NCBI RefSeq assembly: GCF_023336935.1
Contig: NZ_JAMBLR010000001.1
Coordinates: 248,001-312,000 of the forward strand
Origin: Phascolarctobacterium sp. ET69
GTDB lineage: Bacteria; Bacillota; Negativicutes; Acidaminococcales; Acidaminococcaceae
Reading direction: 5' to 3'
DNA length: 64,000 nt
Below the pieces are notes generated by a model that saw only the letters and a list, made by a program, of their open reading frames with translations, did not search any database and was not told the origin of the DNA. This document shows, piece after piece, positions 34,690 to 40,562 of this stretch (position 1 is its first letter; every line of letters begins with the position of its first letter). The position numbers were made by a program, and so were the translations under genes.

Positions 34690-34718
34690 TTGTTTAAAAC
34701 TTTAAAGTTTAGTATAAT
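34690..34718 (+). promoter_or_regulatory. Promoter of a short leader transcript
   Basis: TTGTTT (34690-34695), a 17-base spacer and a perfect TATAAT (34713-34718), just after the MFS stop. Transcription from about 34725 would reach the terminator at 34853-34899 after roughly 175 bases. Confidence 0.65.
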
Positions 34719-34727
34719 TAAATAAAG

Positions 34728-34825
34728 TATAACCGGGAGCGGCAAAGATTATGGGCTGTGTAATCATCAGACAGGCAATCAGGCAGGCGAAGCGGCGTTA
34801 TAACTTAAGGCCGGCACTTTGTTAT
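34728..34825 (+). ncRNA. Candidate structured leader RNA
   Basis: Between the promoter at 34690 and the terminator at 34853 there is a closed pairing. ATAACCGG (34728-34736 region) can pair with CCGG (34812-34815) and GTTAT (34821-34825), with CACTTT bulged between. Inside, GATTA/TAATC (34747-34768 region) forms a hairpin. I do not recognise it as any riboswitch class I know. It may be the aptamer part of an unknown leader, a small RNA, or only the mRNA of the 41-codon ORF it overlaps. Confidence 0.35.
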
Positions 34826-34876
34826 GTAATAAATATTAACAATAAAATTAACGGACGCTTTGCTGTTTACGCTTAA
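34751..34876 (+). CDS. Putative 41-residue small protein or leader peptide
   Basis: A 41-codon frame begins at ATG 34751, with GGGAG 11 bases upstream, a rather long spacing. The product is basic and starts MGCVIIRQAIRQAKRRYNLR. Its stop codon (34874-34876) falls in the loop of the terminator hairpin at 34853-34899. A ribosome translating to the stop would melt the 5' arm of that stem, which is the geometry of translation-controlled attenuation. The ORF may equally be accidental. No known family is recognised. Confidence 0.35.
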   Translation: MGCVIIRQAIRQAKRRYNLRPALCYVININNKINGRFAVYA

Positions 34877-34899
34877 CGCAGACAGCAGGGCGTCCTTTT
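34853..34899 (+). terminator. Intrinsic terminator/attenuator before the SUFU gene
   Basis: GGACGCTTTGCTGT (34853-34866) pairs along all 14 bases with ACAGCAGGGCGTCC (34882-34895), two pairs being G-U, followed by TTTTG and TATTTT. It stands 38 bases before the SUFU gene start, so the downstream cluster needs readthrough or its own promoter. Confidence 0.88.
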
Positions 34900-34936
34900 G
34901 TATTTTGGCGCAGGCTGTTTGAAAGGGGAAGGCTTT

Positions 34937-36847
34937 ATGAACGATTTACTTAAAAAGATTGTGGAGTGGAATGAAGCAAATGAATATCAAAAATGTGTTG
35001 ATGCCATTGAAGCCATACCGGAAGAAGAACGCGGCTATGAACTGACCGTGCTTTTGGGCAGGGCTTACAGCAATTTGGGAGTGTTTGGCGATAATAATTC
35101 CAAAGCAAACGAGGACGGCGTGGATATATTTTTGCTGGAAAAAGCCGTAAATATTTTTGAAAGCGTGCGCCTGCAAGGGCTGGATGACTGGTATTGGAAT
35201 TGCCGTATGGCTTACGCTCTGTGGATGACATCCGGGCGCGAGCTGGAAGCACTGGCCTATGCACGCAAATGGCAGCAGTTAAAGCCTGATGACGAAGACG
35301 CGGCAAATTTAATTAAAACCATCGAAGAATATATTGAAGAAAATTACCGCGAACCGGAAGTTTACAGTTTTGAAGAAATGCAGAGCGTTGGAAACCATAT
35401 TGAAAAATATTTCGGCAAGTACGGCCGCGTAATGCATGAATTGGCATCGCCTGATATTCACGTGGATATTTATGTTATCCCGCCACGGGCGGAACATGAA
35501 TATTATACGCTGGTAACCTGCGGCATGGGTGCGCATAAAATGGAAGTGCCTGATGAGCTGAAAAACGAACAATTGGAACGTGCCGAACTTTTAATTAACC
35601 TGCCGGCCGGTTGGCAGCTTGACGAAGAATCACTAAAGGACGAAAAGTGGTACTGGCCTATACGATTTTTGAAATTTATGGCGCGCAGCCCTGTTAATAA
35701 CGGAATGTATTATGACTGGGGCTCAACGCTTGAATTTGACGATATTACCAGCTTTGATGAGAGTACAAAGCTGTGTTCGGCTGTTGTTTTAAGCCCCGGT
35801 GTTTTTGGCGAAGTAAGTTATGCCTGCACGCTTCCAAATGGCGATGCAGTAAATTTTTATCAGGCAATACCGCTTTATAAAGAAGAACTTGATTATAAAG
35901 TGGAAAACGGGATGGATAAATTATTGCAAAAATGCCCGGATGAAATTTTGGAAGTCATCAATCCCAACCGTTTAAACGCTGTTACTGATGCAGAAATATT
36001 AAATTATGATGACCGCGAAATGGACTGTGCCGCAGAGCATTTAAAACTGATACAGGAACATAATCTTTCGGTTGATGAACTGGCAGTATACAGCCATATG
36101 GCGGCATACCTGCGCTGGTGCATAAACCATAATTTAATGGGCGACGTTTTTTTACAGCAGCACGGTGACGTGGCTATAAATGTAAAAAGCGGCAGCCTTA
36201 ATGATTTGCGTGCTTTTGTGCGTGATGAACTTGGCGGCAGGCTTATGATAATTGATTACAACTATAAAGGGGTATGCTTTGCCAACTGGTACAACACCGG
36301 CAACCGCAGCATGCCCTACGCCTTTATTAAAGATTTAAAAGCATACGCAAGAGAATATTTTAAAGGGCAAATGCCTTGCGCAGAAGAAGCGGCATACCTG
36401 CTTTTGCCCTGGGGTGACGAATATTGCCGGGCTGTTGAAAAAATTATTGAAGGACGTTTTGCCGAATGGCAAAAACTGTGCGGAGAAGAAAATGCTGTGC
36501 AGCCGTTTATTGATGAAAGCAATTTTAAAGAACTGCTGCCAGACTGGCAGGGAGCACGGCATTGCCGCATAAGTAAACGGATTATAAAAGACGGCTGTAC
36601 GGTAGGCTTTTGCTGCCGGGAGGAACCTGACAGCGATGATACAGGCTGGGACAGCGGCTGGTACTTTGAAGCTGGCGACGAGGATGAAGTTTATGCCGGT
36701 GAAGATGCAGAGTATGGCATTTACGATTTAAATACTATCTGCAATTTGTATCCGGAGCTTTTGCCTTTGTTAAACAGCCCTTATGGTACTGCTTTTGAGC
36801 GCAATAAAAAGGGCAGACTGGTACAGATAAAGGACGAAGAGGAATAA
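34937..36847 (+). CDS. TPR-SUFU-DUF2185 multidomain immunity-like protein
   Basis: A 636-residue cytoplasmic protein. Residues 1-135 look like TPR-type helical repeats (LGRAYSNLG, CRMAYALWMTSGRELEAL). About 150-320 is a SUFU (suppressor of fused) domain, with DIHVDIYVIPP, YYTLVTCGMG, LLINLPAGW and FMARSPV. The middle (330-540) has an AAYLRWCINHNL segment of unassigned type. About 545-630 matches DUF2185 (Imm33), with GWDSGWYFEAGDEDE and the LLPLLNSPYGTAFER ending. Bacterial SUFU and DUF2185 domains are known as immunity modules of polymorphic toxins. No toxin lies next to it. The ATG at 34937 is set by AAAGGGGAAGG. Confidence 0.8.
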   Translation: MNDLLKKIVEWNEANEYQKCVDAIEAIPEEERGYELTVLLGRAYSNLGVFGDNNSKANEDGVDIFLLEKAVNIFESVRLQGLDDWYWNCRMAYALWMTSGRELEALAYARKWQQLKPDDEDAANLIKTIEEYIEENYREPEVYSFEEMQSVGNHIEKYFGKYGRVMHELASPDIHVDIYVIPPRAEHEYYTLVTCGMGAHKMEVPDELKNEQLERAELLINLPAGWQLDEESLKDEKWYWPIRFLKFMARSPVNNGMYYDWGSTLEFDDITSFDESTKLCSAVVLSPGVFGEVSYACTLPNGDAVNFYQAIPLYKEELDYKVENGMDKLLQKCPDEILEVINPNRLNAVTDAEILNYDDREMDCAAEHLKLIQEHNLSVDELAVYSHMAAYLRWCINHNLMGDVFLQQHGDVAINVKSGSLNDLRAFVRDELGGRLMIIDYNYKGVCFANWYNTGNRSMPYAFIKDLKAYAREYFKGQMPCAEEAAYLLLPWGDEYCRAVEKIIEGRFAEWQKLCGEENAVQPFIDESNFKELLPDWQGARHCRISKRIIKDGCTVGFCCREEPDSDDTGWDSGWYFEAGDEDEVYAGEDAEYGIYDLNTICNLYPELLPLLNSPYGTAFERNKKGRLVQIKDEEE

Positions 36848-36848
36848 A

Positions 36849-37067
36849 ATGGATAAGGCTTTGACGGATTTTATAACCGAATACCGTGATTACATAACAC
36901 TTTTTACAGGCATTGTGCTTGTTGTTGGAGCAGTAAAAAACTGGAACTGGCTGTGTAACCCGGTCGGTAAGCCGGACGCACAGCTTTTAAGCCGCGGCAT
37001 GTACCGGCTTATCTTTGGCGCGCTTGGTTTAATACTTATTGTTTGCAGCTTAACGCTGATGTTTTAA
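36849..37067 (+). CDS. Imm17-like two-helix membrane protein
   Basis: A 72-residue protein with hydrophobic segments at about 15-30 and 50-71. Between them lies the loop KNWNWLCNPVGKPDAQL. The pattern GMYRLIFGALGLILI near the end resembles the Imm17 immunity family. It begins one base after the SUFU gene stop, so it is translationally linked. The family assignment is by recall of pattern and moderate. Confidence 0.65.
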   Translation: MDKALTDFITEYRDYITLFTGIVLVVGAVKNWNWLCNPVGKPDAQLLSRGMYRLIFGALGLILIVCSLTLMF

Positions 37068-37081
37068 AAGGAGGTCTTTTT

Positions 37082-37828
37082 ATGGAACCTACTAAAGAAT
37101 GGCTTGCTTTATATGAAAAAGTAAAAGAAAAAACTAAAAGTGCGGTAGATTTTAATAAGTATTTTGAGGAAAAAGAAATTGCCGGAATGGCTTTGGATGT
37201 TATGAATATTGGTTTATGCGATTTGCCAAGCGGCAAAGTAATAGTTGCCGACCCTTTGGTTTACCTTGATAAAAATTGTACTCCGTATTTAGTGCAGGCT
37301 CCTGCCGGAAGTTATCAAACGGAAGTTTGCGTTGTTAAACAGCATGATGGTGATTGCGCGCGTTATGCTGCTGTGCGCCTGCGTTTTAACCAAAACCGCG
37401 CTGTAAAATTTTATGAGGCGCTTATTGGCAGTGAAGATTTGGAAAACTTTGAAGAAGGAGAATATTTTGGCTTTAATGTAGATGCCGGTTTGGGATGTAT
37501 CTGCGATGCCGGAATAAATAAAATTATTGCCGAATGGCAGGAAAAATGGGAAAAGGAAAATCCTGACGGCGAGATTTATAACGATTATTTTTATGGTTTT
37601 TTTAAAGAAAGTTACAAACAAAATCCGCAGTATCAGCGTGATGGCGGAGACTGGATTAACTGGCAGGTTCCCGGTACGGATTATCACGTTCCGTTTCTTC
37701 AATCTGGCTTTGGCGACGGAACATACCCGGTTTACTGGGGATTTGATGAAAACGGCAAGGTTTGCCAGCTGATAGTGCAGTTTATTGATATAGAACTTGC
37801 TTACAATGATGAAGATGAGGAGGAATAG
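37082..37828 (+). CDS. DUF4241 protein
   Basis: A 248-residue soluble protein. The segments LPSGKVIVADPLVYL, QAPAGSYQTEVCVV and RYAAVRLRF are those of DUF4241, a family found beside SUFU/SUKH-type immunity genes. The start is the ATG at 37082 after AAAAGGAGG, with the frame beginning 15 bases after the preceding stop. There is no signal peptide. Biochemical role unknown; an immunity-like role is inferred from the neighbours. Confidence 0.75.
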   Translation: MEPTKEWLALYEKVKEKTKSAVDFNKYFEEKEIAGMALDVMNIGLCDLPSGKVIVADPLVYLDKNCTPYLVQAPAGSYQTEVCVVKQHDGDCARYAAVRLRFNQNRAVKFYEALIGSEDLENFEEGEYFGFNVDAGLGCICDAGINKIIAEWQEKWEKENPDGEIYNDYFYGFFKESYKQNPQYQRDGGDWINWQVPGTDYHVPFLQSGFGDGTYPVYWGFDENGKVCQLIVQFIDIELAYNDEDEEE

Positions 37829-37830
37829 CT

Positions 37831-38910
37831 ATGAATATGGAACAAATGCAGGCGGCAAAAGCAGCAATGGCAGAATGGCTGGCGCACCCGCAGGAGCTTG
37901 GGCACGAACCGGCAGAAATTGAATGTGCCGGCACTTTTGAGCTGCATGAAATGACTTATTATTTGTTTAAATACCGTGCCGAAGCAGGCGGCGCGTGGCT
38001 GCTTGGCGTATGCGGCGGTTATGAAGGCGATGGGCTCGAACATTGCGGGCATGTGTTCAGCGAAATGGAAGAATATGACCCCGCAACAGCCGAAGAAAAA
38101 GCTGCGGCAATGGTAGAAATGGTGCGCACTTATTGGATGGAACAGGCTAAAGAGATTGAAGCACGCAAAAACAGGGCAGGCAGTTTTGCAGGCTTTGTGC
38201 TGATGGCAGAAAATAAATGGGATAAAGGTCAGCTCATCCGCAATTTAAAAGAAGAATGGGGCATTGAAGTCGTTGAAGACAGCGACGAAAAACGGGAAGA
38301 CGCTTTGGTATTTGATGTTGGCAATATGATTGCCGCTGTAAGTTTGATGCCTGCGCCGATACCTAACGGCGAAGCGGAAGCCAATGCTGCAAACAACTAT
38401 ATGTGGCCGGAAGCTGTGGAAGCAGCCAAAGCGCATAAAGCGCACATTATGGTGGCAATTATCGGCAAAGAAGAAAACCTACTGGAACGTGGCAAACTGT
38501 TTACCAAAATTTTGGCTTGCTGCTGCGCTCAGCCCGGCGCTTTGGGCGTGTATACCAGCGGCGTAGTGTTTGCGCCGTGGTTTTATGCTAAATTTGCCAA
38601 CATTATGAAAGAAGGCGGCCTGCCGGTTTACAACTGGATTTGGATAGGGCTGTACCGCAGTGAAAAAGGCATTTGCGGCTATACCTATGGCATGGTGGAA
38701 TTCGGCAAGGACGAAATGGAAGTTTTGGATGCCGATGCCGACCCCAACGATTTGCGTGACTTTATCTACAGCTTAGCAGGCTATGTGCTGGAGTATGATG
38801 TAACCCTTAACAACGGTGAAACTATCGGCTTCAGCGCCGAGGACAAACACGCCATAACTTACAGTGAAGGCGTTGCTTTGCCGGGCATGACGCTGAAAAT
38901 TGAATATTAA
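37831..38910 (+). CDS. Two-domain protein with C-terminal DUF4261
   Basis: A 359-residue soluble protein. The first 110 residues form an acidic domain with CAGTFELHEM, WLLGVCGGYEGD and EHCGHVFSEM. From about 118 the DUF4261 pattern follows: ALVFDVGNMIAAVSLMPAPIP, NYMWPEA, KAHIMVAI and a TYGMVEFGKDEMEV stretch. DUF4261 has no established function and commonly appears with SUFU and DUF4241 genes. GAGGAGGAAT precedes the ATG. It starts three bases after the DUF4241 gene. Confidence 0.75.
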   Translation: MNMEQMQAAKAAMAEWLAHPQELGHEPAEIECAGTFELHEMTYYLFKYRAEAGGAWLLGVCGGYEGDGLEHCGHVFSEMEEYDPATAEEKAAAMVEMVRTYWMEQAKEIEARKNRAGSFAGFVLMAENKWDKGQLIRNLKEEWGIEVVEDSDEKREDALVFDVGNMIAAVSLMPAPIPNGEAEANAANNYMWPEAVEAAKAHKAHIMVAIIGKEENLLERGKLFTKILACCCAQPGALGVYTSGVVFAPWFYAKFANIMKEGGLPVYNWIWIGLYRSEKGICGYTYGMVEFGKDEMEVLDADADPNDLRDFIYSLAGYVLEYDVTLNNGETIGFSAEDKHAITYSEGVALPGMTLKIEY

Positions 38911-38923
38911 GGGAGGAATTGTT

Positions 38924-39250
38924 ATGAAAAAGTTTAATCCCGATTATGTACTGCTTGAAGAAATGTATCAGGACGAATATTACCCTGATTTTTTAGTTGA
39001 TAAAGTAAAAGCGGAAATAACAAAAGTGATAGAACTTTTGGAAAGCGGCGAAAGCGATGTTGAAATTATCCAAGGCAAACTTGATGAAATAACATGTGCC
39101 ATTAATGATTTGCAGGAAGAATTTTGGGACAATGACAGCGAAATTGAAACCGTTGCAAGAGATTGTATAGGCGAAACGATATATTACATTTTAAACTGGT
39201 TTGATGTACCTATTGATGAAGAAGAAGCCATCCGCGAACGCGATTGGTAA
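38924..39250 (+). CDS. DUF5713-like protein
   Basis: A 108-residue acidic helical protein: MYQDEYYPDFLVDKVKAEI, then INDLQEEFWDNDSEIETVAR and the ending EEEAIRERDW, which fit DUF5713 as I recall it. The start is the ATG at 38924 after GGGAGG. Its position in the row of immunity-like genes suggests the same role; no biochemistry is known to me. Confidence 0.65.
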   Translation: MKKFNPDYVLLEEMYQDEYYPDFLVDKVKAEITKVIELLESGESDVEIIQGKLDEITCAINDLQEEFWDNDSEIETVARDCIGETIYYILNWFDVPIDEEEAIRERDW

Positions 39251-39264
39251 GAAAGGAGTAAATT

Positions 39265-39675
39265 ATGAGCTATGATTTGATGGTTTTTGAAATAACCAAA
39301 GCACCAAAAACTAAAAAAGAATTTATGGCATGGTACGATAAAATAACGGAATGGGAAGAAGAGCACGATTATGAAACAGTCAGCGTAACTTCGCCCGCTT
39401 TGCAAAACTGGTTTATGGAAATGAAAGAAACCTTCCCGCCGATGAACGGCGAGTTTGCGCCTGACGACGAGGCGATTAAAAATGATGAAGATTTGGAAAG
39501 CCGTTTAACGGATTACAGCATAAGCTATGACTCTGTTTACGCTGCTTTTAGTTGGTCTCTTGCCGAAGAAGCATACGAAACAATGCGCAGGCTTGCGCAA
39601 AAACACGGCGTTGGCTTTTTTGATGCCAGCGGCGACGGCGATATTATTTTGCCGGACGGTATGATGATAGAGTAA
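39265..39675 (+). CDS. Conserved hypothetical protein of immunity-gene neighbourhoods
   Basis: A 136-residue protein opening MSYDLMVFEITKAPKTKKEF. It has paired Trp-containing segments (FMAWYDKITEWEEEHDYE) and the FPPMNGEFAPDD motif. I recall similar MSYDLMVF proteins scattered in many bacteria near immunity-type genes, without a settled name or function. GAAAGGAG precedes the ATG. Last gene of the tightly packed series that starts at 34937. Confidence 0.7.
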   Translation: MSYDLMVFEITKAPKTKKEFMAWYDKITEWEEEHDYETVSVTSPALQNWFMEMKETFPPMNGEFAPDDEAIKNDEDLESRLTDYSISYDSVYAAFSWSLAEEAYETMRRLAQKHGVGFFDASGDGDIILPDGMMIE

Positions 39676-39702: not shown

Positions 39703-40562
39703 ATGAAAGAAAATGATTTTATGTTAAAAATAATTTTTATGACATTACTTTTGTGCTTTAGTTTGATAAATTATGATTTCTCTTATGTTAATGCTGCCGA
39801 AAATAAAAATGTACAATATTCTGCAACAACGATTTTAAATACTAAAATATTTTCTAATGATGAATTTGGGATAACATTAGAAATCCCCGAAGAATTTGAA
39901 AAGGTTAAAAGAGATTTAAAAGAGGGAGAACTTTTATTGGCTAAAAGTAATTTTGATGCGTCATTATTAAGCATAGACGCTTTCAAAATGAATGGTCTTT
40001 ATTATGTATTTGATAATGAAGAAGGAGAAAATCAGAAGAAAGAAGATATTTTAAAACAATTTTCTGATTTAGCTAAAAAAGAACGTGTTAATAAAGATGA
40101 AAAAATTTTAGAAAATAGCATTATAAATATTAACGATCAAAAAGTGTTTCATTTTGTATATGCAAAGAAAGTACCTTATAAAAATAAGTTTATAACATAT
40201 ATTGAGGTAATACTTTTATGACAGGAGTCATTTTAGAAAAGTTGGGTGATAATCCTAAGCATTCGTATTATCCAAATTCATTAACTAATTTAAATTCAGA
40301 AGAAAAACAGATAATTTTAGAAAATCTTATGTTAGAATCGAAAGACATAAGTAAATATGCGAAAAATGTTAAAATATCCTTTATTGAAGTAAATAAAATG
40401 GATTCTGTTCTATTAGAATTTGATGATTCAACAAGTCATTCTTTAAGTTATATATTTATAAAAGATGGTAATTATATAGCTTTTGATTATATTTATAATG
40501 CTGCAAGCGAAAAAGAAGTAAGACCTTTAGTTGAAAAATCTGTTCAAAGTATTAAGTTATAA
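39703..40562 (+). pseudogene. AT-rich exported protein gene, apparently split by a frameshift
   Basis: The first frame (39703-40221) encodes a signal peptide (MLKIIFMTLLLCFSL, if started at 39721) and a domain with EFGITLEIPEEFEKVKR, ending YIEVILL. A second frame (40218-40562) continues with 114 residues. Adding one G in the GAGG run at about 40205-40208 would fuse them as YIEGNTFMTGVILEKLG, which reads as a natural continuation. The whole stretch is visibly more AT-rich than its neighbours and its codon use is different, hinting at recent acquisition. The alternative is two real genes overlapping as ATGA. Function unknown. Confidence 0.6.

What the first reader, a model, noticed from the sequence alone, without database searches (positions are those of the whole stretch)
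34937..39675. Six-gene immunity-like array with no obvious toxin beside it
Seen: six tightly packed plus-strand genes with short gaps (1-17 bases) and good ribosome sites. Known: SUFU, DUF2185/Imm33 and Imm17 are immunity modules in polymorphic-toxin systems, and DUF4241, DUF4261 and DUF5713 are often neighbours. Inference: this is an orphan immunity or poly-immunity array that protects against rivals' toxins. The first gene fuses TPR, SUFU and DUF2185, so it may neutralise several effectors. A secreted lipoprotein nuclease lies 1.4 kb upstream, but in a separate transcription unit behind an MFS gene, so it is a weak candidate partner.
Basis: partly seen in the sequence, partly recalled or inferred. 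Interest (0 to 1): 0.7.

Follow-up and report, generated by a model that had tools for sequence, protein, structure and literature searches.

The report
Orphan toxin-immunity gene array
A gut bacterium of the genus Phascolarctobacterium carries a small operon of six genes that look like antidotes to other bacteria's protein toxins, with no matching toxin beside it, and related antidote collections move between distant gut bacteria.

Summary
Six co-oriented genes (34937-39675, gaps of 1-14 bases) encode SUFU+DUF7832+Imm33, an Imm17-like membrane protein, DUF4241, DUF4261, DUF5713 and a family absent from Pfam. The host genus is Phascolarctobacterium. The array is an accessory insertion: two of six congeners have it, and in four the upstream MFS gene runs straight into the downstream flank. 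The secreted nuclease upstream is conserved with or without the array, so it is not the partner. No RHS repeats were found in the genome, and its one TPS protein looks like an adhesin. Three independent lines make DUF4241 an immunity family: a 60%-identical copy in an rAID-type array (tyrosine recombinase, Imm22, SUKH, intergenic repeats) in Phocaeicola; a copy directly behind an RHS toxin with an HNH-like tip in Nostoc; and copies in polyimmunity islands of gut Clostridia. DUF4261 adjoins an AHH-nuclease RTX toxin locus and Imm11. All five soluble proteins are more acidic than 38 sampled neighbours, which fits nuclease binding. Best reading: a heterogeneous orphan polyimmunity locus, probably biased against nuclease toxins. 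It is a new member of a known kind; the immunity assignments for DUF4241, DUF4261 and, more weakly, DUF5713 and gene 6 seem undocumented.

The parts
34690..34718 (+). putative promoter TTGTTT-17-TATAAT at the start of the inserted segment
   Evidence: inspection of the sequence and alignment with L009, where TTGTTG-17-TATAAT is kept; weak, and below the threshold of the consensus scan
34856..34909 (+). terminator-like hairpin plus T-run about 30 bases before gene 1 (attenuator, or displaced MFS terminator)
   Evidence: z-score -7.2; a counterpart in L009 with different bases but an intact stem, z-score -6.4
34937..36847 (+). gene 1, 636 aa: TPR-like N-terminus, SUFU, DUF7832, Imm33
   Evidence: Pfam; same architecture in L009 and in Subdoligranulum
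36849..37067 (+). gene 2, 72 aa: Imm17-like, two hydrophobic stretches, WNW motif
   Evidence: Pfam just under the cut-off; gene 1-gene 2 order kept in Subdoligranulum; hydropathy
37082..37828 (+). gene 3, 248 aa: DUF4241, inferred immunity protein
   Evidence: Pfam; rAID-type array in Phocaeicola; behind an RHS toxin in Nostoc
37831..38910 (+). gene 4, 359 aa: DUF4261, inferred immunity protein
   Evidence: Pfam; domain of giant polyimmunity proteins; next to AHH-RTX and Imm11 genes
38924..39250 (+). gene 5, 108 aa: DUF5713, possible immunity protein
   Evidence: Pfam; recurrent neighbour of DUF4241 in polyimmunity islands
39265..39675 (+). gene 6, 136 aa: family not in Pfam, ferredoxin-like model, possible immunity protein
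   Evidence: homologues; integron cassette in two places; model

Best explanation
The six genes form a heterogeneous orphan polyimmunity locus: one operon of unrelated antidote proteins, kept without toxins, that lets this Phascolarctobacterium survive toxins injected or secreted by neighbouring gut bacteria. Most likely each soluble protein binds one or a few incoming toxin domains in the cytoplasm and blocks the active site, and the small membrane protein (gene 2) acts at the inner membrane. Known partners of the families and the strong acidity of all five soluble proteins suggest that many of the targets are nucleases, particularly of the HNH/AHH (His-Me finger) type. Shown here: gene content, operon-like layout, accessory insertion, absence of a linked toxin, homologues in immunity arrays and beside toxins, acidity. 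Inferred: binding, protection, the range of targets, co-transcription.
For: Domains: SUFU, Imm33 and an Imm17-like protein in one operon with DUF4241, DUF4261 and DUF5713. Accessory: present in 2 of 6 congeners; MFS gene and downstream flank adjoin in the four others. No toxin in the array; RHS in 0 of 13 genomes; the TPS protein is adhesin-like with no immunity gene behind it. DUF4241 copy 60% identical to gene 3 in an rAID-type array with recombinase, two Imm22-type genes, SUKH-1 and intergenic repeats. DUF4241 103 bases behind an RHS protein with an HNH-like tip, followed by a Tdi1 immunity gene and a second DUF4241. DUF4261 two genes from an RTX protein with an AHH nuclease domain in Conchiformibius, and next to Imm11 between type I secretion genes and an RTX gene in R. 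etli. DUF4261, SUFU, DUF7832 and Imm33 fused in giant proteins with Imm68 and SUKH. Genes 1-2, DUF5713, DUF4241 and such a giant in one island ending at an integrase. Genome-level co-occurrence of the DUFs in a Bacillota sample beyond chance: 4 of 6 DUF4241 genomes also have DUF4261, p=2e-5, or 0.009 by genus. Net charge per residue -0.084 to -0.204 against a minimum of -0.051 in 38 neighbours, p=2e-4. Literature: polyimmunity loci defined in PMC3482391; rAID orphan immunity proteins protect, using an acidic patch (PMC12247911).
Against: No function was measured. Most DUF4241, DUF4261 and DUF5713 copies in a Bacillota sample are solitary genes among housekeeping genes, without a toxin; Streptomyces plasmid copies have no recognisable toxin beside them; DUF4241 sits inside the 2-oxoglutarate dehydrogenase operon in Rhizobium. 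Gene 5 and gene 6 have no toxin link at all. No recombinase lies at the window locus. Whether the array is transcribed is unknown.
Confidence: 0.8

Rival explanations
1. The array is the immunity half of a toxin system that this strain still makes: the secreted lipoprotein nuclease upstream, or a toxin elsewhere in the genome, is the partner.
For: An Endonuclea_NS_2 lipoprotein lies 1.4 kb upstream, and the Nostoc RHS tip in front of DUF4241 has a weak hit to the same family. Array and TPS protein are present in the same two congeners.
Against: The nuclease and MFS genes are conserved in all five congeners, four without the array. The TPS protein ends without a toxin-like domain or an immunity gene behind it. 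No RHS repeats in the genome. LXG, WXG100, PAAR and other delivery types were not searched.
Confidence: 0.07
2. The DUF genes are housekeeping or stress proteins that happen to share an operon with one immunity gene; the cluster is a mixed accessory operon and not a defence array.
For: Solitary chromosomal copies without toxins are common; DUF4241 lies in a metabolic operon in Rhizobium.
Against: The same families recur together, and with curated Imm families, in unrelated islands and in an rAID-type array; two have members beside toxin genes; the locus is dispensable in congeners.
Confidence: 0.1
3. The array is an anti-phage or other mobile-element defence.
For: Variable island; gene 6 relatives travel as integron cassettes.
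Against: No PADLOC match beyond one weak chance-level hit; no effector enzyme or nuclease in the array; families tied to toxin immunity.
Confidence: 0.03

Closest known systems
Heterogeneous polyimmunity loci and polyimmunity proteins (Zhang et al. 2012, PMC3482391)
   Same: Tandem co-oriented genes for structurally unrelated immunity domains, short gaps, no toxin in between, content varying between close relatives; a multi-domain fusion of SUFU and Imm33.
   Different: Found here in a Negativicute of the genus Phascolarctobacterium; includes DUF4241, DUF5713 and an unnamed family, none of them named in that paper; no recombinase at this site.
rAID, recombinase-associated acquired interbacterial defence of Bacteroidales (PMC12247911)
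   Same: Orphan immunity genes without effectors in a gut bacterium; a 60%-identical DUF4241 is cargo of an rAID-type array.
   Different: No tyrosine recombinase and no intergenic repeat motif in the window; gene 1 and gene 4 are longer than 300 codons.
Giant Clostridia polyimmunity proteins (type: Clostridium sp. L2-50, PMC3482391)
   Same: Share the SUFU-DUF7832, Imm33, DUF4261 and TPR-like modules with genes 1 and 4.
   Different: There the modules are one 1900-2270 aa chain on a transferred island; here they are separate genes.

Membership tests
Heterogeneous polyimmunity locus | several structurally unrelated immunity families in tandem (extended: four or more) | tested here: met
   SUFU/Imm33, an Imm17-like protein and four further families; two of the four have toxin or array links, the other two are inferred only from neighbours
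Heterogeneous polyimmunity locus | not interrupted by toxin genes | tested here: met
Heterogeneous polyimmunity locus | small gaps, same orientation | tested here: met
   gaps 1-14 bases, all +
Heterogeneous polyimmunity locus | content differs between close relatives | tested here: met
   absent in four congeners, without gene 6 in a fifth
Heterogeneous polyimmunity locus | proteins neutralise toxins | not testable with these tools
   needs expression and toxin assays
rAID | linked tyrosine recombinase | tested here: not met
   none recognised among the window ORFs read
rAID | conserved intergenic sequence motifs | tested here: not met
   only short chance-like repeats inside genes
rAID | co-oriented short genes of about 100-300 codons | tested here: inconclusive
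   three of six fit
Imm17 (gene 2) | two TM helices, WxW and R between them | tested here: met
   WNW at residues 32-34 and R between the two hydrophobic stretches; only the C-terminal stretch passes a simple hydropathy threshold
Imm17 (gene 2) | score over Pfam gathering cut-off | tested here: not met
   23.8 against 25 bits

The most novel reading that the evidence does not exclude
DUF4241, DUF4261, DUF5713 and the gene-6 family are four unrecognised immunity families, and the array as a whole is specialised for nuclease toxins of the HNH/AHH (His-Me finger) kind: a pan-nuclease shield of acidic proteins, with a leader hairpin that may switch it on by antitermination.
Probability: 0.2. Interest if true: 0.65.

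Novelty: new member of a known kind. Interest (0 to 1): 0.42.

Why it matters
It extends orphan toxin immunity, which is experimentally established in gut Bacteroidales, to a gut Negativicute. It gives testable partners for widespread unnamed families: DUF4241 against HNH-type RHS tips, DUF4261 against AHH-type RTX toxins. It also shows that related polyimmunity islands have moved at 90-98% DNA identity between Faecalibacterium, Holdemania, Lachnospiraceae and other gut Bacillota, which suggests that defence against neighbours' toxins is a shared, mobile resource in the gut.

Tried and rejected
Upstream nuclease as partner: rejected by its conservation without the array. TPS protein of the genome as a CdiA-type toxin: rejected, GLUG-rich adhesin-like with no toxin tip. 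NCBIfam, PHROGs and PADLOC gave nothing useful. No PDB sequence relatives. The DUF4241 model was too poor to use (mean pLDDT 46.5). The gene 6 model (79.9, from two sequences) is ferredoxin-like; its best structural matches (Z under 8) are mostly designed proteins and say nothing about function. Viral contigs and phages: no relatives of genes 3-5 in viral contigs, two places for gene 6 in viral contigs and none in phage records. Rfam: nothing. Faster evolution of the array than of its neighbours was looked for and not seen: 65-87% against 65-98% identity. A wider test of DUF4241 in Bacteroidales genomes could not be run.

Full report
Observation. The region holds six tightly packed + strand genes at the stated coordinates, with gaps of 1, 14, 2, 13 and 14 bases. 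Pfam finds SUFU, DUF7832 and Imm33 in gene 1, a sub-threshold Imm17 in gene 2, DUF4241 in gene 3, DUF4261 in gene 4, DUF5713 in gene 5 and nothing in gene 6. Gene 2 carries the WxW motif and the arginine that PMC3482391 gives as the Imm17 signature. Gene 6 has relatives at 27-54% identity in Hymenobacter, Pseudomonas, Ruminococcus, Agrobacterium, Actinomyces and Fusobacterium records.

Host and locus. The closest named relative of gene 1 (73%) lies in an uncultured Phascolarctobacterium. The genome has 1.88 Mb in 11 contigs. Of five other species of the genus, one has the array without gene 6 and four lack it. In those four the MFS gene upstream is followed, directly or after one small secreted-protein gene, by the glycerate kinase that lies downstream in the window. 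So the array is an accessory insertion at a conserved site. Its GC (43.8%) matches the genome (44.5%) and its divergence matches the flanks, so it is not a very recent arrival; gain and loss cannot be told apart with these data. The upstream lipoprotein nuclease is present in all five congeners and is not an obligate partner.

Toxins. RHS repeats were not found in 13 genomes of the family, this one included. One TPS-domain protein (2464 aa) exists in this genome, and one in the array-bearing congener. It follows a two-partner transporter gene, is rich in GLUG-like repeats, ends without a recognisable toxin tip and has no small gene behind it. Other delivery systems were not searched.

What the families do elsewhere. 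In a Phocaeicola record a DUF4241 gene, 60% identical to gene 3, is the sixth gene of an array that begins with a tyrosine recombinase and contains two near-identical Imm22-type genes, a SUKH-1 gene and DUF4265, with repeated motifs between genes. Those are the three features by which PMC12247911 defines rAID, an experimentally supported orphan immunity system. In Nostoc, DUF4241 follows by 103 bases the end of an RHS/YD protein whose tip has an HNH-like motif (weak Endonuclea_NS_2 and HNH matches), and is itself followed by a Tdi1-type immunity gene and a second DUF4241. DUF4261 lies two genes from an RTX protein with an N-terminal AHH nuclease domain in Conchiformibius, in duplicate, and beside an Imm11 gene between type I secretion genes and an RTX gene in Rhizobium etli. 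DUF5713 is a repeated neighbour of DUF4241 in gut Clostridia islands but has no toxin link. Gene 6 relatives are an integron cassette in a Pseudomonas aeruginosa class 1 integron and, judging from attC-like repeats, in an environmental array. PMC3482391 lists HNH, NGO1392-like, DHNNK and AHH nucleases among the partners of SUFU and Imm33.

Islands. Genes 1 and 4 share modules with giant 1900-2270 aa polyimmunity proteins in gut Bacillota (DUF4259, Imm68, Imm33, TPR, SUKH, DUF4261, SUFU, DUF7832, DUF4253). The islands around them are mostly 86-98% identical in DNA over up to 20 kb between hosts of different classes (for example 20.7 kb at 95.6% between CCNA10 and Holdemania filiformis). One copy, on a record labelled Subdoligranulum variabile, holds gene 1-gene 2 in the window's order, DUF5713, DUF4241 and a giant, and ends at an integrase. 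The organism labels of the OY records come from the depositors and were not checked.

Acidity. All five soluble proteins have a net charge per residue of -0.084 to -0.204; the most acidic of 38 other window proteins is at -0.051 (Mann-Whitney p=1.7e-4). Acidic surfaces are used by rAID immunity proteins (PMC12247911) and by many nuclease inhibitors (general knowledge). This supports the guess that nucleases are major targets, but it is indirect.

Counter-evidence. In a sample of about 350 Bacillota genomes the DUF families are rare and mostly solitary among housekeeping genes. They do co-occur in genomes more than chance predicts, but by genus the numbers are small. In Rhizobium sp. DUF4241 is inside the 2-oxoglutarate dehydrogenase operon. 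These cases allow other functions for some members.

Conclusion. The locus meets every tested feature of a heterogeneous polyimmunity locus and fails two of three rAID features. It most probably works as an orphan antidote array. It is a new member of a known kind, with two well-supported and two weaker assignments of unnamed families to immunity. A library search for these DUF names found no paper describing such a role for DUF4241, DUF4261 or DUF5713, going by titles and abstracts.

Noticed in passing
window 34690-34909 and L009 9763-9973: A conserved leader in both array-bearing species: TATAAT-like promoter right after the MFS stop, then a 16-19 bp terminator-like hairpin with different bases but an intact stem, ending about 30-40 bases before gene 1. 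Attenuator, or a displaced MFS terminator.
   Followed up: partly
window 39703-40562: Two small genes behind gene 6 with 23.7% GC against 44% in the genome, no family; absent in the array-bearing congener, where a MarR-like regulator gene stands instead. Probably a separate later insertion.
   Followed up: no
L010-L029, L056: Polyimmunity islands with giant 1900-2270 aa proteins, mostly 86-98% identical in DNA between Faecalibacterium, Holdemania, Anaerotruncus, Lachnospiraceae and others: recent transfer across classes.
   Followed up: partly
L046 6001-6381; L111 6001-6378: Relatives of gene 6 are integron cassettes, one between aac(6')-Ib and blaOXA on a KPC plasmid of Pseudomonas aeruginosa.
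   Followed up: partly
L055 1284-25009: Conchiformibius plasmid with a duplicated unit: relaxase, DUF4261, small gene, AHH-domain gene or AHH-RTX protein.
   Followed up: partly
L119 4407-13517: Two-partner system in the host genome: transporter plus a 2464 aa GLUG-rich TPS protein, present in the two array-bearing congeners and not detected in the four without the array.
   Followed up: partly
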